This document shows, piece by piece, positions 714 to 12,442 of a stretch of 41,659 nucleotides of DNA (its first letter is position 1; each line of letters begins with the position of its first letter). The stretch is taken from contig JANINR010000056.1 in NCBI GenBank assembly GCA_024508915.1, forward strand, positions 1-41,659, read 5' to 3'. The notes beneath the pieces were generated by a model. That model was not told the DNA's origin. It searched no databases and worked only from the letters and a program-made list of their open reading frames with translations. Position numbers and translations under genes: made by a program. This DNA comes from Lysobacteraceae bacterium. GTDB taxonomy: Bacteria; Pseudomonadota; Gammaproteobacteria; Xanthomonadales; Xanthomonadaceae.

Positions 714-1564
714 CCGGCGCCGCCGTCGGCCGGTGCGGTCATGGCCTTCGCCGGCGCCTTGAACTTCGCGCAGGGGTCGGGACGTTCGTGCGGCGGCACG
801 GTGTCGGCGCTGTCGAAGTGCGCGGCCTCGGCAGGATCCTCGACGAAACCGATCGATTCCGACGCGATGCCGCGCGCGCGCAGCCAAGCGGGCACGGCGA
901 AGTCGCGGCGCACGTGGCCGTTGCCGGCGACCAGCACGACGCCGCCGACCCCGGGCGCCGCCAGCGCGTCGGCGATGACGTCGGCCATCGCGATGTCGCG
1001 CGCGACCTGCGCCGTCGCCATCGGCGCCAGCATCTCCTCCGGCAGCGCGCCGCAATGGCCGGCGCGGACTTCCTCGACCTGCGGCCGGAGGATGTCGGCG
1101 GGAACCGGCTTGCCGTCCGGCGTCTCGTAGCCGTGCTCGACGATCCTGCCCGCGTCCGCGCGCGACAGGTTGGCGGCGAACAGCGGCAGGTGTTCCCGCA
1201 GCGCCAGCTCGATCACGGGCGCGTAGTACTCCCAGGTCCAGCCGGCCTTCGCCGGCGCCGCCATCGCGACGACGCAGGCGGCGTCGCGGCATTCGCGCTG
1301 CGCGCGGTCGAGGTCGGCCTGCCGTTCGCGGTCGAACTGCTCCATCGCGATCGCGGGGCGCCAGCCGGCGGCGACGCGCGCCTGCAGCAGTTCGAAGCGG
1401 GCGCGGTGGCCGTCGGGGTTGTCGTGCACCTCGCCGAGCAGCAGCACCTTCGGTGCGGCCTGGGCGGCCTGCGCGCGGGCGGGGGCCGGCGGCAGCGCCG
1501 CCAGGACGGCGCTGGCGAGCAGCGCGGCGGACAAGGCGGCGGGCAGGGACGTCCGGAGGGCCAT
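707..1564 (-). CDS. ChaN-family (haem-binding uptake, DUF399-type) exported protein
   Basis: 285 residues. An N-terminal signal peptide (hydrophobic stretch about 8-25, ending ARA-QA) is followed by the ChaN-type core: [12 protein letters not shown] near residue 42, AMEQFDRE near 74 and [11 protein letters not shown] towards the end. ChaN-family proteins are periplasmic or outer-membrane-facing and have been linked to haem/iron binding; many are lipoproteins, but no lipobox cysteine is seen here, so this one is probably cleaved by signal peptidase I. It runs convergent to the sulfotransferase-like gene and divergent from icmF, with a 68-base gap. The function in this organism is inferred from family only. 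Confidence 0.8.
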
Positions 1565-1620
1565 CGCAAGGCTCGGGTGGCGCGCCGTCGCGGCGCCGGG
1601 CCAGCCTAGCAGGCCGGCGC

Positions 1621-1626
1621 TACAAT
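1621..1626 (+). promoter_or_regulatory. -10-like TACAAT placed for a leaderless icmF transcript
   Basis: TACAAT ends exactly six bases before the icmF ATG at 1633. A transcript from this element would start at or next to the start codon. No convincing Shine-Dalgarno precedes the ATG. The same hexamer and spacing recur at 17569. No clear -35 box is visible. Confidence 0.5.
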
Positions 1627-1632
1627 CGGCGG

Positions 1633-4600
1633 ATGACCACGAAATCCAATGCCCAGGCCGCTTCGGCCACCCCCCAGGCCGAATCCGCCACGCCGCTGCG
1701 CTTCGTCACCGCCGCCAGCCTGTTCGACGGCCACGACGCCGCGATCAACATCATGCGCCGCCTGATCCAGGCGCAGGGCGCGGAAGTCGTGCACCTCGGC
1801 CACAACCGCTCGGTCGAGGACGTTGTGCGCGCCGCGCTGCAGGAGGACGCCGACGGCATCGCGCTGTCCTCGTACCAGGGCGGCCACGTCGAATACCTCA
1901 AGTACATGGTGGACATGCTGCGCGAGCGCGGCGCCGGCCACATCAAGGTCTTCGCCGGCGGCGGCGGCACGATCACGCCGGAGGAGATCCGCGAGCTCGA
2001 GGCCTACGGCGTCGAGCGCATCTACCACCCCAACGACGGCATGCACATGGGGCTGGTGGCGATGATCGAAGACGTCGTGCGCCGCGCGGAATCCGCGCGC
2101 CTGCCCGTCGAGACGCCGCACAAGGTTGCGTTCTCCGACGAGATCGAGATCGGCCGCATGCTGTCGGCGATCGAGGAGGGCGCGCTGCCCGAAGCCGAGC
2201 TCGCGCGCCTGCGCAAGGAATGGCAGCTGGCCGGCGGCCGCACGCCGGTGGTCGGCATCACCGGCACGGGCGGCGCGGGCAAGTCCTCCGTCACCGACGA
2301 GTTGCTCAACCGCTTCCTGGCCTCGTTCCCGGACATGCGGATGGCGGTGATTTCCGTGGACCCGACGCGGCGCCGCACCGGCGGCGCGCTGCTGGGCGAC
2401 CGCATCCGCATGAATTCGCTACGGTCGAAGCGCGTATTCATGCGCTCGATGGCCACGCGTCGCCAGCACGCCGCCACGAACGTGGTGCTGCAGGACTGCA
2501 TCGCGTTCCTGAAGTCGCTGGGCTACGACCTGGTGATCGTCGAGACCGCCGGCATCGGCCAGAGCGACTCGGAGATCGTCGACCTGGTCGACTTCCCGAT
2601 GTACGTCATGACGTCGGACTTCGGCGCGCCGAGCCAGCTCGAGAAGATCGACATGCTCGACTTCGCCGAGCTCGTCGTCCTGAACAAGTTCGACAAGCGC
2701 GGGGCCGAGGACGCGCTGCGCGACGTGCGCAAGCAGTGGAAGCGCAACCACGTCAAGTTCCAGGTGAAGGACGAGGACGTGCCGGTCTACCCGACGATCG
2801 CGTCGCAGTTCAACGACCCTGGCATTTCGTGGATGTTCGCGAACCTGTGCCGGCTGCTGCGCGAAAAGCTGGAGCTGCCGGCCGACAAGTGGACCCCGTC
2901 GGTCGACACGTCGCTGAAGGAGCCGCGCGCGACGGTGCTGATCCCCGGCGCGCGCGTCCGCTACCTCGCCGAGATCGCGGAGCAGGGGCGCGCGATCAAC
3001 GCGCGCATCGAGTCGCAGGCCGAAGTCGCCGACCGCGCGCAGTCGTACTGGCAGTCGCTGCAGGACCTCGGCGACGCCGCGCTGCCGCCCGCGCTCGGCC
3101 TGTACGACGCGAGCGCGCTGACCGACGGCGACGCCGACAAGTCGCTGCGCACCCTGCGCCAGCGCTACCAGGACGCCGTCCAGTCGCTCGACTCCGAGGC
3201 CCTGAAGCTGCTGCGCGAGTGGCCGGCGCGGCTGAAGTCGATCACCGAGGACGTCAACGAGTACCAGGTGCGCGACAGGACGATCCGCGTCGAGAACTAC
3301 CGCGAGTCGCTGTCGCACCAGAAGATCCCGAAGATCGCCGCGCCGTCGTACCGGTCGTGGGGCGAGCTGCTGGTGTTCCTGCAGAAGGAGAACCTGCCCG
3401 GCGCGTATCCCTACACCGGCGGCGTGTACCCGTACCGCCGCACCGGCGAGGACCCGATTCGCATGTTCGCGGGCGAGGGCACGCCCGAGCGCACCAACCG
3501 CCGCTTCCACTACCTGAGCGTCGGCCAGCCGGCCGCGCGCCTGTCCACCGCCTTCGACAGCGTCACGCTGTACGGCGAGGACCCGGCGGAGCGCCCGGAC
3601 ATCTACGGCAAGATCGGCAACTCCGGCGTCAACATCGCCACGCTCGACGACATGAAGAAGCTGTACTCCGGCTTCGACCTGTGCGCGCCGACGACCAGCG
3701 TGTCCATGACGATCAACGGTCCGGCGCCGATGATCCTGGCGATGTTCATGAACACCGCGGTCGACCAGCAGGTGGAGAAGTACCTGCGCGCCGACCAGCA
3801 GCGCTGGGACGCGGCGGCGGCGAAGATCGCCAAGCTCTTCGAGGGCCGCAAGCGGCCCGAGTACAGCGGCATGCTGCCCGAAGGCAACGACGGCCTCGGC
3901 CTCGGGCTGCTCGGCGTGACCGGCGACCAACTGGTCGAGCCCGAGGTGTACGCGCGCATCAAGGCCGAGACGCTGAAGACCGTGCGCGGCACCGTGCAGG
4001 CCGACATCCTCAAGGAGGACCAGGCCCAGAACACCTGCATCTTCAGCACCGAGTTCGCGCTGCGGATGATGGGCGACATCCAGCAGTACTTCGTCGACCA
4101 CGGCGTCCGCAACTTCTATTCGGTCTCGATCTCGGGCTACCACATCGCCGAGGCCGGCGCGAACCCGATCTCGCAGCTCGCGTTCACCCTGTCCAATGGT
4201 TTTACCATCGTCGAGTACTACCTCGCGCGCGGCATGAAGGTGGACGACTTCGCGCCCAACCTGTCGTTCTTCTTCAGCAACGGCATGGACCCGGAGTACA
4301 CCGTCATCGGCCGCGTCGCCCGCCGCATCTGGGCGCGCGCCATGCGCGAGCGCTACGGCGCCTCCGCGCGCAGCCAGATGATGAAGTACCACATCCAGAC
4401 GTCCGGCCGTTCGCTGCACGCGCAGGAGATCCAGTTCAACGACATCCGCACCACGCTGCAGGCCCTGTACGCGCTGTTCGACAACTGCAACTCGCTGCAC
4501 ACCAACGCCTACGACGAAGCGATCACCACGCCGACCGAGGAAAGCGTGCGCCGCGCCGTCGCGATCCAGATGATCATCAACAAGGAACTGGGCCTCAACT

Positions 4601-5115
4601 TCATCGAGAACCCCTGGCAGGGCAGCTTCGCGGTGGAGTACCTCACCGACCTGGTCGAGGAGGCCGTGTACAAGGAGTTCGAGGCCATCAGCGAGCGCGG
4701 CGGCGTGCTCGGCGCCATGGACACCATGTACCAGCGCGGCAAGATCCAGGAAGAATCGCTGTACTACGAGCACAAGAAGCACGACGGCTCGCTGCCGCTG
4801 GTGGGCGTCAACACGTTCCTGCCCAAGGACCACGGCGGCGACATCGTCACCGAGATCGAGCTGATCCGCTCGACCCCCGAGGAGAAGGCCCAGCAGATCC
4901 GCAACGTCGAGGCCTTCCGCGCCCGCGGCCAGGACGAAGCCGACGTCGTCGGCGCACACCTGCAGGCCGCGACCAGCCTGTCGGCGCTACAGGCGACCGC
5001 GCGCGACCGCAAGAACGTGTTCGCCGCGTTGATGGAAGCGGTGAAGACGCATTCGCTGGGGCAGATCAGCCATGCGCTGTACGAAGTCGGCGGCGAATAT
5101 CGCCGCAACATGTAA
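1633..5115 (+). CDS. icmF: Fused isobutyryl-CoA mutase IcmF (B12-binding, G-protein chaperone and mutase domains)
   Basis: 1160 residues in the known IcmF order. The adenosylcobalamin-binding domain is about residues 25-160, with D32-G-H34 (DGHDAAIN variant of DxHxxG). A MeaB-like GTPase domain is about 205-410, with a Walker A GTGGAGKS around K217 and NKFD for guanine specificity. The mutase barrel runs from about 560 to the end. IcmF interconverts isobutyryl-CoA and n-butyryl-CoA, with some isovaleryl/pivalyl-CoA activity in studied members; the GTPase domain guards cofactor loading. Q799 in DILKEDQAQ lies where methylmalonyl-CoA mutase has its CoA-site arginine, supporting the Icm rather than Mcm type. 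The ATG is chosen because family homology starts shortly after it and it follows a TACAAT element. A decayed copy of its last ~73 codons lies at 10240-10456. Confidence 0.95.
5040..5069 (+). repeat. 30-base direct repeat, copy 1 (inside icmF 3' end)
   Basis: These 30 bases, encoding about [10 protein letters not shown], are identical to 10385-10414. The flanking sequence on both sides of the second copy is also recognisably icmF but diverged. This copy is in the intact gene, 46 bases before its stop codon. Confidence 0.95.
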
Positions 5116-5124
5116 GGGAACCGG

Positions 5125-5721
5125 ATGGAGATTTCACAGAAGCGCGGTGGTGCAAGCACCCGCTATGTCTTCCATGACGATCGCGTGGAATATGCGTTCA
5201 AGGACAGCTCGGTCAGTCGCACTTTCAGCGTGCCGTACACCGACATCAGCCGGGACCGCGAGGGTCTGACGGAGCGCAACGTCTGGTTCCGCAACGTCGG
5301 TTACTTCTGGCTCGGGCTGGGCGTGCTCCTGCTGGTGGTTTCCTGGCGGGAGGGCGAAATCGGCCACGGTGCTCTCTGGGCCGTGCTCGGAGCGGGTTGC
5401 CTGGCCACGTACTACGGCTACCCGACGCGCTATCGCATCATTCCCAGCAACAAGGGCAACCTGCTGATCCTCGACCACGACGAATCAGCCGACAGGATCG
5501 AATCGGAGATCGTGGAGCGCCGCGCCGCGCAGTTCCGTGACGAGTACGACTTCTTTCCCGAGGGCGAGAGCCCGCAGCAACTTCGCAACCGCTTCAACTG
5601 GCTGCACCGCGAAGGCGCGCTCAGCGACGAGGAGTTGCAAGAGCGATTGGCCCGCATCGAAGCGGGCGAACAGGCAACGGATGTGGCGGTTCATATCCCG
5701 GAGAACCGGACGCTCAACTGA
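5125..5721 (+). CDS. Membrane protein with SHOCT-like C-terminus, unknown function
   Basis: 198 residues, not recognised as a named family. The N-terminal ~60 residues look like a small beta-rich (PH-like) domain. Two membrane segments follow, about residues 65-80 (FWLGLGVLLLVVS) and 88-103. The C-terminal stretch FNWLHREGALSDEELQERLARI resembles the SHOCT pattern of a short helix pair seen at the ends of many bacterial membrane proteins. It starts 9 bases after the icmF stop and so may be co-transcribed with it. It is convergent with the Mrr-like nuclease gene, 32 bases away. Base composition is somewhat lower in GC than icmF, so it may be an accessory gene. The SHOCT and PH comparisons are by eye only. 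Confidence 0.7.
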   Translation: MEISQKRGGASTRYVFHDDRVEYAFKDSSVSRTFSVPYTDISRDREGLTERNVWFRNVGYFWLGLGVLLLVVSWREGEIGHGALWAVLGAGCLATYYGYPTRYRIIPSNKGNLLILDHDESADRIESEIVERRAAQFRDEYDFFPEGESPQQLRNRFNWLHREGALSDEELQERLARIEAGEQATDVAVHIPENRTLN

Positions 5722-5753
5722 GATCGGCAACCCGCCGCCGGGTCGGTCGTTCC

Positions 5754-6563
5754 CTACGCCGGCAGCGTACCGCGGCAATGAGGATAGGACCGGCAACCCC
5801 AAAACTGTTCGCCGGTCCGTCTGTTGGCGCGCATCACCATGCTCTCCCCGCATTTCGGACACGGCCTCGGAGCGGCTGACGCTCCACTCGTTTCGCTGGC
5901 CGCTGGCGATACGGGCTGCGGCGCCGCCTGTACGGACCGGATCAGCGCCAGCAAGGACTCTCCCGTCACGAGCTCGATCGGCTTGTCTGCCGCAAATGCC
6001 GCTGCATCAGGGGTAAAGACGCCGGCGCAGACGATCTTCGCGCCAGCGGCCTTGTGATGCGAGACAAGGCCCCACATCTCGCGGACAACCGAGACGCTGA
6101 CCTGTCGCGAGCGCCATTGCTTGCATTGCACGAGTTCTGAACGGCCATCCCTCCGGAGGATTAGGTCGATGCCCCCATCCGCGCCCCCGAGCCCGGTCTC
6201 TTCGACCAGGTAGCCTTGCCGCCGATAGGCCTCGCCAACCAGCATCTCGAACTCGCGCCAGGACATTGCCTTGATGCTGTGGATGTCTGACTGCACCTCG
6301 AGGAGATGTCGGCGTTTGCGGCTGCGAAAGAAGGACGCGGCAGCCGCTATCCAGCACATCGCGAGCGCCATCCAGGCGAGCGGAGCGATGGATTCGCCGA
6401 ATTGGCTGCTCATTGCGCGCAGGATCGGGCCACCCGCACCCGCAAGGTAGTGCCCTATGCCGTAACGGATGCCCAGGTACGCGAGGATGCCGATGGCGAC
6501 ACCCATGGGCCACGGCAGCGAAGCCACCACGTCCATACCGCTTTCCCTGCGTCGTCGTCCCAT
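5754..6563 (-). CDS. Membrane-anchored Mrr-type restriction endonuclease with topoisomerase-like zinc ribbon
   Basis: 269 residues. Two membrane segments lie near the N-terminus (about 20-42 and 60-79), then a basic patch (RSRKRR). An Mrr-type nuclease domain spans about 98-212, showing the PD-(D/E)xK signature as D133 in GGIDLIL and Q146-C-K148 in LVQCKQW. After a low-complexity linker comes a four-cysteine zinc ribbon (C235, C238, C257, C263; PCPKCG ... WGCRSYPHC) of the type found at the end of topoisomerase I. The start has a strong GGAGGGAGGG ribosome-binding site. Relatives are thought to cleave modified or foreign DNA, but many membrane-tethered members are uncharacterised. No methyltransferase is nearby, so it is not a classical restriction-modification pair. 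Confidence 0.85.
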   Translation of the reverse strand: MGRRRRESGMDVVASLPWPMGVAIGILAYLGIRYGIGHYLAGAGGPILRAMSSQFGESIAPLAWMALAMCWIAAAASFFRSRKRRHLLEVQSDIHSIKAMSWREFEMLVGEAYRRQGYLVEETGLGGADGGIDLILRRDGRSELVQCKQWRSRQVSVSVVREMWGLVSHHKAAGAKIVCAGVFTPDAAAFAADKPIELVTGESLLALIRSVQAAPQPVSPAASETSGASAAPRPCPKCGESMVMRANRRTGEQFWGCRSYPHCRGTLPA

Positions 6564-8842: not shown

Positions 8843-8934
8843 ATCGCCTCCCCGCGGGCCGGCTGAGGTTCCGGCCTCACTTCCAGAAACGGGGATCGGG
8901 AGCGGACCGGGCCAAGGCCCGCCCTGCGCGGACT

Positions 8935-10140
8935 TCAGCCGCCCAGGTCGAACGTGAACGTCGCGCCCTTGCCGGGCTCGCCCTGCGCCTCGATCTGGCC
9001 GCCGTGGCGCTCGATGATCCGCTGCACGACGGCCAGCCCGACGCCGGTGCCGCTGAATTCGGAGGCCTTGTGCAGGCGCTCGAACGGCCGGAAGAGCCGA
9101 CCCGCGTCCGCCGCCTCGAAACCGGCGCCGTTGTCGCGGACGAAGAAGCGCGTGCGGCCGTCCGCGGTCGTGGCGCCGACGGCGATGTGCGCGTGGGCGA
9201 CGCGCGAGGAGTATTTCCACGCGTTGCCCAGCAGGTTTTCCATCACCGAGCGCAGCAGCCCGCGATCGGCGCGGCATGCCAGGCCCGGGGCGATGTCCAC
9301 CGTGGCCTCGCGTTCGGGTGCCAGGCGGCGCAGGTCCGCCATGATCTCCGCCGCCATCGCCGACAGGTCGACGTCGGTGCGTTCGAGCGCGGCGCCGCCG
9401 ACGTGCGCCAGCGCGAGCAGGTCGTCGACGAGTTGGGTCATGTGGTCGACGGAGCGCTGCAGGCGCTCCAGGTGCTCGCCGAACTTCGGCGGCAGCGGCA
9501 CGCTCTGGTCCATCGCCATCACCTGGCAGGTCATGGCGATCACCTGCAGGGGCGCGCGCAGGTCGTGGCTGACCATCGCGTTGAACGCCTCGACGTCGCG
9601 CAGCGTGCGCTCGATCGTGCGGGTGCGCTCGGCGACGCGCCGCTCGAGGTCGCGGTTGAGCTCCAGCACCTGGGCCTCGGCGCGCTTCTGCTCAGTGATG
9701 TCCTGGCAGACGCCGAGCAGCCGCACCAGCTTGCCGTCGTCGTCGAGCACCGGGTGCGCCCAGGTGTGCAGGTAGCGCATCGACCCGTCCGGCAGCAGGA
9801 TGCGCTCGTCGTGCGAATAGGGCACGTGCTCGTGGAAGACGCGGTTGGTGGCGTCCATCACCCGCTGGCGGTCGTCCGGATGGACCATCGCCAGGTAGTT
9901 CTCATAGGTCGGCGTGTAGCTGTCCGGGCTCAGCCCGTAGATGCGGTAGAGCTCGGCCGACCAGGTGGCCGTCGGCTCACTGATGTCCCACTCCCAGGTC
10001 CCCAGGTGGGCCACGCCCTGGGTGTCGACCATGAGCTGCTCGAGGCGGCGCAGGCGCTGCTCGAGGCGCTTGAGCGCGCCGGGGTCCGAGGCGGGCGGGG
10101 TGGGAGCGGGCGGGGCCGGAACGTCCATGCCCCGCATCAT
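8935..10140 (-). CDS. PAS-domain sensor histidine kinase, orphan
   Basis: 401 residues, with no membrane segment and so probably cytosolic. One PAS domain (PAS_3-like, about 43-150, ending GVCQDITEQKRAEA) is followed by a coiled linker, a HisKA domain with H192 in VSHDLRAPL, and an HATPase domain with N-box ENLLGNAWKY, DNGAGF and GTGVGLAVV. The pattern SHDLRAPLQVI is typical of phytochrome-type and related kinases. No response regulator is encoded next to it, so its partner is elsewhere. The start could be 10140 (ATGATG) or 10128; neither has a clear ribosome-binding site. Confidence 0.9.
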   Translation of the reverse strand: MMRGMDVPAPPAPTPPASDPGALKRLEQRLRRLEQLMVDTQGVAHLGTWEWDISEPTATWSAELYRIYGLSPDSYTPTYENYLAMVHPDDRQRVMDATNRVFHEHVPYSHDERILLPDGSMRYLHTWAHPVLDDDGKLVRLLGVCQDITEQKRAEAQVLELNRDLERRVAERTRTIERTLRDVEAFNAMVSHDLRAPLQVIAMTCQVMAMDQSVPLPPKFGEHLERLQRSVDHMTQLVDDLLALAHVGGAALERTDVDLSAMAAEIMADLRRLAPEREATVDIAPGLACRADRGLLRSVMENLLGNAWKYSSRVAHAHIAVGATTADGRTRFFVRDNGAGFEAADAGRLFRPFERLHKASEFSGTGVGLAVVQRIIERHGGQIEAQGEPGKGATFTFDLGG

Positions 10141-10239
10141 ACGGCCAGGCCGAGGGCGTCACGGGCGGGTTGGCAAGGGAGGTCTGCCGATTTGAGCTGC
10201 CCGGAGGCTATGCTCGGATCATGACATTACATGGCACCG

Positions 10240-10456
10240 GCAGATCCGCAACGTCTAGGCCTCTTGTGCGCGCGGCTACGAAGAGCCGACGTCGCAGGTA
10301 CCTGGCTGCAACCGGGACTAGCCTCTCCGCGCCGCATGCGGCTGTCTGTGACCGCAGGAACGGCTTCGCAACGTTGTTGGGGGTGGTGAAGACGCATTCG
10401 CTGGGGCAGATCAGTCCGCGCCCTACGAAATGGGTGGGGAGTACCGCCGCAACATG
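10240..10456 (+). pseudogene. Decayed second copy of the icmF 3' end
   Basis: About 217 bases align with 4893-5112 of icmF, the last ~73 codons without the stop. A 16-base exact match opens it (10240-10255), then an in-frame TAG (10256-10258) replaces a glutamate codon, small indels break the frame, and a 30-base exact match follows at 10385-10414. The tail still encodes [11 protein letters not shown] against [11 protein letters not shown] in the live gene, but with different synonymous codons (GAG TAC for GAA TAT), pointing to a diverged allele rather than a recent local copy. The stop codon is gone and an AT-rich gene starts 14 bases later, much as the gene at 5125 starts close behind intact icmF. 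No homology to icmF is visible upstream of 10240. Confidence 0.88.
10385..10414 (+). repeat. 30-base direct repeat, copy 2 (in icmF remnant)
   Basis: Identical to 5040-5069 inside icmF. The surrounding remnant is clearly less similar, so this block stands out either as a conserved recombination site or as a chance run within a diverged copy. Confidence 0.95.
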
Positions 10457-10470
10457 GCGAGGGGGAAGGA

Positions 10471-11013
10471 ATGAATCAGGCACAGATTGAAGATCTCATT
10501 AAATTGGTTGCTACTCCTTTTTGGGCACGCGCCGATTTTTGGATCTCCTTCGTGATAGGCCTTCTCGGGTTGTACCTTTCATTCCGAGCATTTAGAGAAG
10601 CAAAAGCAGCTCGTAAAGCAGCTGTTGCTGCGGGCCGAACGGTAAAAATTCAAACCGTAACGATCGAATTGAGTGAGGTATCTCAGCGGCTCGACGCGAT
10701 TAGCGAAAATATTAGCTTCACAGAAGCGAGAAATTTGCTCGCGGAGATAAGTCGTAAGCTCCGCCGCGTCCTTTCCCCATTTTCTGAAGATGAAAGCTTT
10801 AAGGAGGCAATCGAATCTCTAAGGCTAGGCTTGGAAGCCGCGAAGGAAGCGCTGACGTCGGTTAGACCAACGCATGAGAACGATGCTCAGGGTGCAGCTG
10901 CCGGAGTGGTTTATTTTGGTGTTGAGAGCGAATTTTCAAATATAAATAATCTAATTGCGGATGTTATTGGATTGCTAGAGCGCGGATTGATGCGCCAAGG
11001 CGGAGGTCAATAG
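10471..11013 (+). CDS. AT-rich cassette gene 1: single-pass membrane protein with long helical cytosolic domain
   Basis: 180 residues, not recognised. One membrane segment lies at about 22-40 (FWISFVIGLLGLYLSF), followed at once by a basic helix (REAKAARKAAVAAG). A predicted mostly helical, coiled-coil-prone domain spans about 60-130 and ends in a less structured tail. By the positive-inside rule the large domain should be cytosolic. Composition is unlike the neighbours: hand counts of 60-base lines starting at 10501 and 10921 give 29 and 19 G+C. Codons such as AAT, ATA and AAA, rare elsewhere here, are common. GAGGGGGAAGGA precedes the ATG. It is coupled to the next gene (3-base gap). Likely horizontally acquired; a defence or toxin-like role is only a guess. 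Confidence 0.75.
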   Translation: MNQAQIEDLIKLVATPFWARADFWISFVIGLLGLYLSFRAFREAKAARKAAVAAGRTVKIQTVTIELSEVSQRLDAISENISFTEARNLLAEISRKLRRVLSPFSEDESFKEAIESLRLGLEAAKEALTSVRPTHENDAQGAAAGVVYFGVESEFSNINNLIADVIGLLERGLMRQGGGQ

Positions 11014-11016
11014 AAA

Positions 11017-11382
11017 ATGGATTCCAATGAACGAGAGGCCTTTAACGAGATCGTCCGCGACATGGTTGAGAGCACAAACTCTGGCGCAATGATCTGGAAA
11101 AGGATTAATCCGACGGCTTACTCTTGGACCGACAGTGGCGGCCAAATTTTGTTGCAGCAGGTTAAGAAGACAATCAGGTTGAATGCTGGTGCAACTCGCG
11201 AGGTTCGAGGTTACTTTATCCAAGTTCTAGATTCGACTATGGGTCAGCAACTTGCGGTTAATAGCACCGAAGAGAAAGAAGCCCACGATATTCTGAGCGA
11301 GCTTTACGAAGCGATTGGCGCAAGCTTTACGAAGAAGGGTGTCGATTTTTTGAAGAGTTTGGTTTCAGCCGCTAAGAAGTGA
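11017..11382 (+). CDS. AT-rich cassette gene 2: small soluble protein, unknown function
   Basis: 121 residues with no signal peptide, membrane segment or recognised motif. The N-terminus is acidic and helical (NEREAFNEIVRDMVES). A central part looks beta-rich (TAYSWTDSGGQILLQQVKKTIRL ... REVRGYFIQVLD), and the C-terminus is helical and lysine-ended. It starts 3 bases after gene 1 stops, with GGAGG inside the end of gene 1 as its ribosome-binding site, so the two are almost certainly translated together. The line starting 11161 has 27 G+C in 60. The tight pairing of a membrane protein with a small soluble partner suggests a two-component functional unit. Confidence 0.72.
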   Translation: MDSNEREAFNEIVRDMVESTNSGAMIWKRINPTAYSWTDSGGQILLQQVKKTIRLNAGATREVRGYFIQVLDSTMGQQLAVNSTEEKEAHDILSELYEAIGASFTKKGVDFLKSLVSAAKK

Positions 11383-11449: not shown

Positions 11450-11494
11450 GGGATTTACTTAGTTGCAGCCCTAAGCGGTATGCCAATCGACCTA

Positions 11495-11554: not shown

Positions 11555-12442
11555 ATGGCTCTCGAATTGGCTTTGGAATCAGTCGGTTACCGCTACCGCG
11601 GTGGCCATGAGGCGGTCGCCGGCGTCGATCTGGCGCTAACGCCGGGCATCGTCGGCCTTCTGGGGCCGAACGGGGCGGGAAAATCGACCCTGATGCGGGT
11701 CCTGTCCACCCTGGCGAAGGCCACGGCCGGCCGGGTGACCTGGCGCGGCGAGGACATCGCCCGCAAGCCGGACGCGCTGCGCCGGGAGCTGGGCTATCTG
11801 CCGCAGGACTTCGGGGTGTACGAGGCGCTGTCCGCGCGCGAGTTCCTCGCGTTCCTCGCGGCGGTGAAGGGGCTGCCGGCGCGCACGGTCGCACAGCGCG
11901 TCGACGCATGCCTCGCGACGGTCGGCCTCGACGACGTCGCCGACAAGCGCCTGGGCGGCTATTCGGGCGGCATGCGCCAGCGCGTCGGCATCGCGCAGGC
12001 GCTGCTCAACGACCCGAAGCTGCTGATCGTGGACGAGCCGACGGTCGGGCTGGATCCGGAGGAGCGCGTGCGCTTCCGCCACCTGCTGGCGGAGCTGGCC
12101 GGCGAGCGGCTGGTGATCCTGTCGACGCACATCGTGTCCGACATCGAGGCCAGCGCCGGCACGCTGGCGGTGATGGCGGGCGGCAGGCTGCGCTTCCACG
12201 GCGCGCCGGAAACGCTGATGGCCGCGGCGGAAGGGCAGGTGTGGCAGTGGACGCTGCCGGCCGAGCGGCTCGCCGAAGCGCGCACGCGCCTGAAGATCAG
12301 CCGCGCGCAGCGGCGCGCGTACGGCGTGGAGGTGCGCGTGGTGGGCGACAAACCGTCGGAGGACGCACAACGCGTTGCGCCCGACCTCGAGGACGCCTAC
12401 CTGTGGCTGCTGCATCGCAGCGGCGAAGCGGCGGCCGCATGA
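11555..12442 (+). CDS. ABC transporter ATP-binding protein (ABC-2 exporter type)
   Basis: 295 residues. Walker A is LLGPNGAGKST near residue 33, the signature is YSGGMRQRVGIAQA, Walker B is LLIVDEPTVGLDP, and the switch histidine is in LSTHIVSD. The C-terminal ~80 residues are the usual accessory extension of exporter-type ATPases. It is transcribed with the following permease (ATGA overlap), together forming an ABC-2-like exporter. The predicted promoter at 11495 is close. The substrate cannot be told from sequence. The GC content returns to the chromosomal norm here, marking the end of the AT-rich patch. Confidence 0.92.
   Translation: MALELALESVGYRYRGGHEAVAGVDLALTPGIVGLLGPNGAGKSTLMRVLSTLAKATAGRVTWRGEDIARKPDALRRELGYLPQDFGVYEALSAREFLAFLAAVKGLPARTVAQRVDACLATVGLDDVADKRLGGYSGGMRQRVGIAQALLNDPKLLIVDEPTVGLDPEERVRFRHLLAELAGERLVILSTHIVSDIEASAGTLAVMAGGRLRFHGAPETLMAAAEGQVWQWTLPAERLAEARTRLKISRAQRRAYGVEVRVVGDKPSEDAQRVAPDLEDAYLWLLHRSGEAAAA

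What the first reader, a model, noticed from the sequence alone, without database searches (positions are those of the whole stretch)
10240..10456. Decayed, diverged second copy of the icmF 3' end, 5.3 kb from the intact gene
About 217 bases match the last ~73 codons of icmF but carry a TAG stop, small indels, and synonymous differences (GGT GGG GAG TAC against GGC GGC GAA TAT). This pattern looks like the end of a different icmF allele that arrived with neighbouring DNA and decayed. In both copies a non-IcmF gene starts within 10-14 bases of the last icmF codon, so the site just after icmF may be a repeated insertion spot for accessory genes.
Basis: partly seen in the sequence, partly recalled or inferred. 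Interest (0 to 1): 0.7.

Follow-up and report, generated by a model that had tools for sequence, protein, structure and literature searches.

The report
Gene-tail scar at a defence hotspot
A decayed copy of the end of a metabolic gene is a scar that arrived with two foreign genes, and it leads to a spot right behind that gene where related bacteria repeatedly acquire different foreign genes, many of phage-defence type, with no integrase gene close by.

Summary
In detail: 10237-10456 is a broken copy (76% identity over 223 columns, TAG stop, one-base indels) of the last 73 codons of icmF, 5.1 kb behind the intact gene. It is not a lone duplication. In 18 other genomes of the family (13 genera) and one of another family, extra icmF 3' ends lie just downstream of icmF on the same strand; 17 of 21 copies lose homology at the stop codon, while their left ends differ. 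AT-rich genes, many of defence families, start a median 32 nt after such tails. A synonymously recoded icmF tail of about 42 nt goes with AT-rich cargo (P=9e-5). The second gene of the window's AT-rich pair has one relative in the order genomes searched; there both genes directly follow an intact icmF with that tail. Remnant and pair lie in a 1.35-kb stretch absent from a congener. No tyrosine integrase lies near icmF in 15 of 15 genomes checked. Best mechanism (inferred): recombination homologous on one side, illegitimate on the other. A Y1 transposase clusters at the locus; its role is untested.

The parts
1453..5115 (+). intact icmF, fused isobutyryl-CoA mutase (1220 aa), with a native-type 3' end (1 of 8 recoded positions)
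   Evidence: NCBIfam NF045497 above cut-off; Pfam domains; tail score
10142..11490 (.). stretch inserted between histidine kinase and ABC gene, absent from congener G002, which has 51 unmatched nt there
10237..10456 (+). decayed icmF 3' end (TAG stop, one-base indels), ending at the last icmF codon
10415..10456 (+). partly recoded tail of the remnant (42 nt), the part that corresponds to the tag shared with other cargo-bearing loci
   Evidence: right half of the remnant closest to congener G003
10471..11013 (+). AT-rich gene 1 (180 aa, GC 0.48), no Pfam, PADLOC or above-cut-off NCBIfam family
   Evidence: 51% identical homologue behind icmF in G531
11017..11382 (+). AT-rich gene 2 (121 aa, GC 0.47), no Pfam or NCBIfam family
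   Evidence: 39% identical homologue behind icmF in G531
8935..10140 (-). left flank of the insertion: PAS histidine kinase
   Evidence: 90% DNA identity to G002 over 8931-10141
11555..12442 (+). right flank of the insertion: ABC transporter ATPase
   Evidence: homology to G002 resumes at 11491
5125..5721 (+). 198-aa gene that starts 9 nt behind the icmF stop; no family
   Evidence: homologue also near icmF in G003
5754..6563 (-). Mrr-type restriction endonuclease gene with zinc ribbon, second gene behind icmF
   Evidence: Pfam Mrr_cat

Best explanation
The 3' end of icmF is the fixed left anchor of a hotspot for foreign genes, many of defence type, across the Lysobacterales. Units made of an icmF 3' end plus one to several AT-rich genes pass between related bacteria. 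The best-supported route is uptake of a linear fragment that recombines homologously on one side (usually in icmF) and is joined illegitimately on the other. If the illegitimate joint falls downstream of icmF, the old cargo is replaced; if it falls inside icmF, the old icmF 3' end is pushed downstream, with its old cargo still attached, as a scar. Shown: recurrent copies, loss of homology at the stop codon, differing left ends, tail-cargo association, defence families among the cargo, no tyrosine integrase nearby. Inferred: the recombination route. In the window the simplest single event is that a fragment holding an icmF 3' end, the AT-rich pair and the start of the ABC gene, from a congener-like donor, recombined homologously on the ABC side and was joined illegitimately in the gap upstream of it; the icmF end, no longer needed, then decayed (inferred).
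For: Extra icmF 3' ends downstream of icmF in 18 other family genomes, 13 genera, plus G100. 17 of 21 copies lose homology 0-8 nt after the last codon; 19 left ends examined run from 83 to 716 nt before the stop, with no shared motif by eye. Copies are closest to their own genome's icmF in the nine cases tested but one (G206), and in 16 of 20 copies that differ from icmF more than half of the differences are at codon position 3. 24 of 47 recoded tails against 3 of 33 native tails are followed by an AT-rich gene (P=9e-5). The same cargo pairs follow tails in different genera, among them the window's pair in G531. No PF00589 gene within 100 kb of icmF on its contig in 15 of 15 genomes (some of these contigs are shorter than that). 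Remnant and pair are absent together from G002.
Against: The recoded signature is confined to about the last 14 codons, sharper than expected for plain homologous exchange. So many different cargos start so close behind the stop (median 32 nt) that a recognised site is suggested. Y1 transposase genes are strongly clustered here. The empty site rests on a single congener. No congener carrying the pair behind icmF was found. Microhomology at the joints was not tested.
Confidence: 0.55

Rival explanations
1. Site-specific integration: the recoded tail of about 42 nt is an attachment site, elements restore the gene's end with their own copy, and a recombinase supplied in trans or since lost moves them.
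For: Sharp limit of the recoded stretch, cargo close behind the stop, homology of copies ending at the stop, shared tail DNA in many genera.
Against: No tyrosine integrase near icmF in 15 of 15 genomes. The motif scan found a second tail only in loci with a known copy and, at weak scores, in G059, G388, G350 and G264, so most single-cargo loci show no second attachment site within the stretch held. Copies are far longer than 42 nt and have differing left ends. Serine recombinases and other transposases were not sought genome-wide.
Confidence: 0.2
2. A Y1 (HUH) single-strand transposase that sits at the locus moves the units or makes one of their ends at its flanking repeats.
For: 16 of 102 listed Y1_Tnp genes lie within 15 kb downstream of icmF, 0.44 expected; in five genomes the only copy lies there (genomes chosen for having one near icmF). 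8 of 10 copies have inverted repeats on both sides. A variant of the repeat abuts the icmF copy in G161.
Against: The repeats are no denser behind icmF (1.27 per 10 kb) than in six further stretches from the same genus (13 in 103 kb), and only weakly enriched at cargo ends (8 of 38 against 24 of 244, P=0.054). Many cargo genomes have no Y1 gene near icmF: a Y1-like gene lay in 9 of 81 loci, and the window's genome has none at all.
Confidence: 0.1
3. Plain old duplication: the remnant is an in-situ duplicate of the window's own icmF end, unconnected with the AT-rich pair.
For: As a whole the remnant is closer to the window's own icmF (0.768) than to any of 160 others.
Against: The pair follows an icmF end in another family too; AT-rich cargo follows copies in many genera; G002 lacks remnant and pair together; 28 of 51 differences are at codon position 3.
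Confidence: 0.05

Closest known systems
Hotspots without mobility genes exchanged by recombination at flanking core genes (Oliveira et al. 2017, PMC5635113; abstract and found passages seen)
   Same: A fixed core gene beside fast-changing foreign genes, with no integrase nearby
   Different: That model is a clean double exchange; here displaced pieces of the anchor gene stay behind, and a recoded gene tail is shared across genera
Homology-facilitated illegitimate recombination (PMC3240628; start of abstract seen in the listing)
   Same: One homologous and one illegitimate joint predicts one fixed and one differing end, as seen
   Different: Described as an experimental process; here inferred from junctions in many species
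Integrative elements that target the 3' end of a protein gene and restore it (general knowledge; SGI1 at trmE, PMC8409611, start of abstract seen)
   Same: Insertion at a gene's end, gene kept intact, synonymously different gene end
   Different: No integrase near icmF, and displaced copies far longer than a usual core, with differing left ends
Integron gene cassettes and pdif modules (recalled, no call)
   Same: Recombinase-free gene units that stack in the same orientation behind one site
   Different: No integron-type or dif-type site was shown; the tag is part of a coding gene
REP-associated tyrosine transposases (PMC6006769; found passages seen)
   Same: Y1 gene between inverted repeats, present at some of these loci
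   Different: Repeat here is GGGGTCAG or GTGTCAGGGACA, not the GTAG/GTGG-tagged palindromes of the passages seen

Membership tests
IcmF (fused isobutyryl-CoA mutase), source of the remnant | homology to the C-terminal end of an IcmF equivalog gene | tested here: met
   76% DNA identity to 4890-5112; icmF itself above the NF045497 cut-off
Site-specific integrative element at a gene 3' end | tyrosine recombinase gene in or beside the element | tested here: not met
   No PF00589 gene within 100 kb of icmF on its contig in 15 of 15 cargo genomes; serine recombinases not tested
Site-specific integrative element at a gene 3' end | direct repeat of the core at the far end of the insert | tested here: inconclusive
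   Present in loci with icmF copies, not found in most single-cargo loci within the stretch held
Mobility-gene-free hotspot driven by homologous recombination | diverse genes between conserved neighbours without integrase | tested here: met
   Different cargos behind icmF; in eight loci of two genera the same neighbour gene follows the variable part
Mobility-gene-free hotspot driven by homologous recombination | excess recombination in the flanking core gene | not tested
   Needs many strains of one species
Homology-facilitated illegitimate recombination | one homologous and one illegitimate junction | tested here: inconclusive
   Fixed right ends and differing left ends fit; microhomology at the joint not tested
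Anti-phage defence island | known defence families among the inserted genes | tested here: met
   NACHT, GmrSD, OLD/Gabija-like, DruA, HamA, Schlafen and others; 12 of the 40 proteins scanned singly had no Pfam match
Anti-phage defence island | the window's own pair protects against phages | not testable with these tools
   No family for the pair
REP-associated tyrosine transposase unit | Y1 gene with inverted cognate repeats | tested here: inconclusive
   Met for 8 of 10 Y1 copies at the locus in other genomes; the window's genome has no Y1 gene

The most novel reading that the evidence does not exclude
The recoded icmF tail of about 42 nt is the docking site of an undescribed cassette system: integrase-less units, many carrying defence genes, are recognised at the tail and inserted exactly behind it by a factor encoded elsewhere or by the Y1 transposase that clusters at the locus, giving an integron-like array built on the end of a metabolic gene.
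Probability: 0.2. Interest if true: 0.85.

Novelty: new variant of a known kind. Interest (0 to 1): 0.62.

Why it matters
How defence genes without mobility genes move between chromosomes is an open question. Here displaced pieces of the anchor gene record successive insertions, and a short DNA tag marks the place across an order of bacteria, so the route can be read from junctions and tested in the laboratory. The tag is also a practical handle: it finds the spot in unannotated genomes and points to candidate defence genes, among them the window's uncharacterised pair.

Tried and rejected
Considered and set aside. (1) Chance match: excluded by score and shuffles. (2) Type VI secretion icmF: wrong family. 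(3) Local codon drift next to AT-rich DNA as the cause of the recoded tail: the tail keeps G-ending codons such as GGG, GAG and CGG and is nearly the same DNA in many genera. (4) A phage-borne element: no exact tail in IMG/VR; no match of AT-rich gene 1 in the plasmid records or of gene 2 in the phage records; the two converse searches were not made. (5) A precise right-hand junction: in eight loci of two genera, homology on the right begins at the end of a neighbouring gene, with no motif seen by eye. (6) A shared motif at the left ends of the copies: none seen by eye in 19. (7) A XerCD dif-like site: compared by eye from recall only, no convincing match. (8) A known structure or family for the pair: a PDB match of E 0.44 for gene 1, a far sub-threshold NCBIfam match for gene 1 and none for gene 2, no PDB match for gene 2. 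Gene 1 also has weak partial matches (26% and 37% identity) inside frames of about 1000 residues in G024 and G139, not followed up. No structure was predicted.

Limits. The loci compared were taken from search hits and not at random: one search took 20 genomes known to have extra copies, a mixed set, mainly high-ranking hits. In one search the two groups were defined by codons -9 to -2, so the difference there is by construction; codons -14, -13 and -11 are the independent evidence. One search left out L119 and six intermediate tails. L119 was placed in the wrong frame and corrected, which dropped one locus as too short. Only 150 Y1 matches were printed; 102 of them, in genomes whose icmF place I had, entered, and the genome size of 3.5 Mb in its expectation is a round figure. 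The grouped family scans printed only the first 25 families, so absence of a recombinase is firm only for the 40 proteins scanned singly. The pairs leave out matches above 97% identity, taken as the same genome seen twice. ORF calls in scripts are mechanical. Whether the window's assembly is from an isolate or a metagenome is not known.

Full report
Observation. The stretch 10237-10456 aligns to the last 73 codons of icmF (4890-5112) at 75.8% identity over 223 columns, with a TAG stop and one-base indels. Shuffled controls reach a score of at most 42 against 224. A search of the genome found no further copy. icmF is the fused isobutyryl-CoA mutase. Of 51 substitutions, 28 are at third codon positions (P=0.001), so the copy diverged partly as a coding sequence and then decayed.

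What surrounds it. The remnant is followed after 14 nt by two AT-rich genes (GC 0.48 and 0.47) without a known family (gene 1 also without a PADLOC match). In the congener G002 the histidine kinase on the left and the ABC gene on the right are adjacent; homology to the window ends at 10141 and resumes at 11491, with 51 unmatched nt in G002. So remnant and pair lie in one inserted stretch of about 1.35 kb. Of the eight other genomes of the genus only G002 has this ABC gene at high identity (92% over 910 nt), so the empty arrangement rests on one genome.

Recurrence. The last 79 residues of icmF were sought in 395 genomes of the family; 282 have a match. Besides the window's genome, 23 have more than one. 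Of these, 18, in 13 genera, have clean extra 3' ends downstream on the same strand, 0.4 to 6.2 kb away; G322 has a more complex arrangement with inverted pieces, G416 lies on a short contig, and G159, G162 and G351 gave weak, distant or split matches that I do not count. G100, of another family in the order, has one too. Homology of copy to intact gene stops 0 to 8 nt after the last codon in 17 of 21 copies; the others stop at +15, +40, +82 and -24. In 19 copies examined, left ends lie 83 to 716 nt before the stop, with no shared motif by eye. In G161 the two copies are identical over 562 nt up to the stop codon and differ after it. G314 holds three tails in a row, the third found only by the 28-nt motif with 5 mismatches, and AT-rich genes follow each of the two downstream ones. 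L196 shows a tail of about 30 nt behind unrelated sequence.

Cargo. Behind icmF or a copy, AT-rich genes on the same strand start a median 32 nt after the stop (27 intact-icmF loci, range 6 to 329). Of 40 such proteins scanned one by one, 28 match Pfam at E 0.001 or better, many in families known from defence: NACHT, GmrSD, AAA_21/OLD ATPases, Druantia DruA, Schlafen AlbA_2, DNA methyltransferases, a DEAD helicase with an Mrr domain, a phosphoesterase-STAND protein, ORC-CDC6-like, and a remote, below-cut-off reverse transcriptase; 12 have no match. Among 75 scanned together, 7 match the Old/Gabija/AriA group of PADLOC, and Pfam adds HamA in 1 and RelA/SpoT in 2. No recombinase appears among the 40. 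The same cargo pair follows icmF tails in different genera: G161 and G371 (83% and 76%), G271 and Lysobacter chinensis (72% and 55%), and the window and Rhodanobacter sp. B05 (51% and 39%). The last record (L186) gives the same identities as G531 and is probably the same genome.

The recoded tail. In icmF genes of many genera the last 14 codons are nearly the same unusual DNA; codons further upstream show no such difference. The groups were defined on codons -9 to -2, so codons -14, -13 and -11 carry the independent weight. Using eight synonymous positions, 24 of 47 recoded tails and 3 of 33 native tails (G003, G373, G059) have an AT-rich first gene (Fisher P=9e-5). Across 80 loci the tail score falls with the GC of the DNA behind it (rho -0.47); genus means give rho -0.50 (P=0.006, 29 genera) and a within-genus permutation gives P=0.025. 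The 23 recoded tails without AT-rich cargo may be scars of lost cargo; that is inference. Of 81 places in the 80 loci returned, 80 lie at the end of icmF sequence (intact gene or copy) and one (L196) does not; by my count of the printed table 64 of 81 have GC of 0.58 or less in the DNA behind, measured on up to 2 kb and on less near contig ends. The titles that name a genus known to me as such are nearly all Lysobacterales; a few metagenome bins are labelled otherwise, such as Rhizobium or Chloroflexi. None was found in IMG/VR. Of 395 family genomes 204 have the tail within two mismatches; the reversed control pattern shows 0 in the rows printed.

The window's pair. Among 398 genomes of the order the only one besides the window's own with a relative of the second gene is G531, of another family, and there both genes follow an intact icmF with the recoded tail. 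The remnant itself is not from that lineage: as a whole it is closest to the window's own icmF (0.768, best of 161), its right half to congener G003 (0.836), and it is only 0.618 identical to G531. A congener-like donor is likely; it was not found.

Mechanism. Tyrosine integrases exist in all 15 cargo genomes checked, but none within 100 kb of icmF on its contig, some of these contigs being shorter than that. Other recombinases were not sought genome-wide. Fixed right ends, differing left ends, and copies that look like diverged functional alleles fit integration by homology on one side and illegitimate joining on the other (process described in PMC3240628, start of abstract seen), and the broader idea of integrase-less hotspots driven by recombination in flanking core genes (PMC5635113, abstract and passages seen). 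Against this stand the sharp limit of the recoded tail and the close fit of so many cargos behind the stop, which look like a recognised site. A Y1 transposase gene is strongly clustered here: 16 of 102 listed copies lie within 15 kb downstream of icmF against 0.44 expected, and one lies upstream; 8 of 10 copies checked have inverted flanking repeats, one has a repeat on one side only and one has none. A variant of the repeat ends the insert in G161, but the repeat is no denser behind icmF than in six further stretches from the same genus, is only weakly enriched at cargo ends (8 of 38 against 24 of 244, P=0.054), and the window's genome has no Y1 gene. It is a lead, not a demonstrated cause.

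Literature. Searches for isobutyryl-CoA mutase with integration site or genomic island, methylmalonyl-CoA mutase with defence hotspot, Xanthomonas defence islands, REP transposase with defence, RAYT with Stenotrophomonas, IcmF with Xanthomonas, and Lysobacter with defence hotspot showed no paper on this site among the titles listed. The main text of a Stenotrophomonas defence-island paper (PMC11680222, passages seen) has no word beginning with mutase. The library holds open-licence papers only.

Noticed in passing
L068, L042, L121, L071, L087, L109, L107, L117, L106 (G059, G071, G271, G116, G349, G244, G088, G284, G366) and L244 (G531), 2-8 kb behind icmF: Y1 (HUH) transposase genes, rare in these genomes, cluster behind icmF, mostly between inverted GGGGTCAG or GTGTCAGGGACA repeats.
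   Followed up: partly
window 10471-11382: Two-gene AT-rich pair without known family, conserved as a pair behind icmF in Rhodanobacter-like G531; candidate defence system.
   Followed up: partly
window 5125-6563: A 198-aa gene without family and an Mrr-type endonuclease follow the intact icmF; homologous genes also lie behind icmF in other genera, e.g. G075 and G046.
   Followed up: no
L069:5552-8692: 1047-aa protein directly behind icmF in G058 with a remote, below-cut-off reverse-transcriptase match.
   Followed up: no
G073:C13:90089-90181 and G453:C80:129-158: Exact or near-exact tails on other contigs than the genome's icmF; not fetched, so it is open whether they are ectopic copies or contig breaks.
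   Followed up: no
L049 (G322), 216-965 nt behind icmF: Inverted and direct pieces of the icmF end are shuffled together behind icmF.
   Followed up: no
L046 (G161), between icmF and its copy: Two icmF 3' ends identical over 562 nt flank a two-gene AT-rich cargo, suggesting a recent event and possible excision.
   Followed up: no
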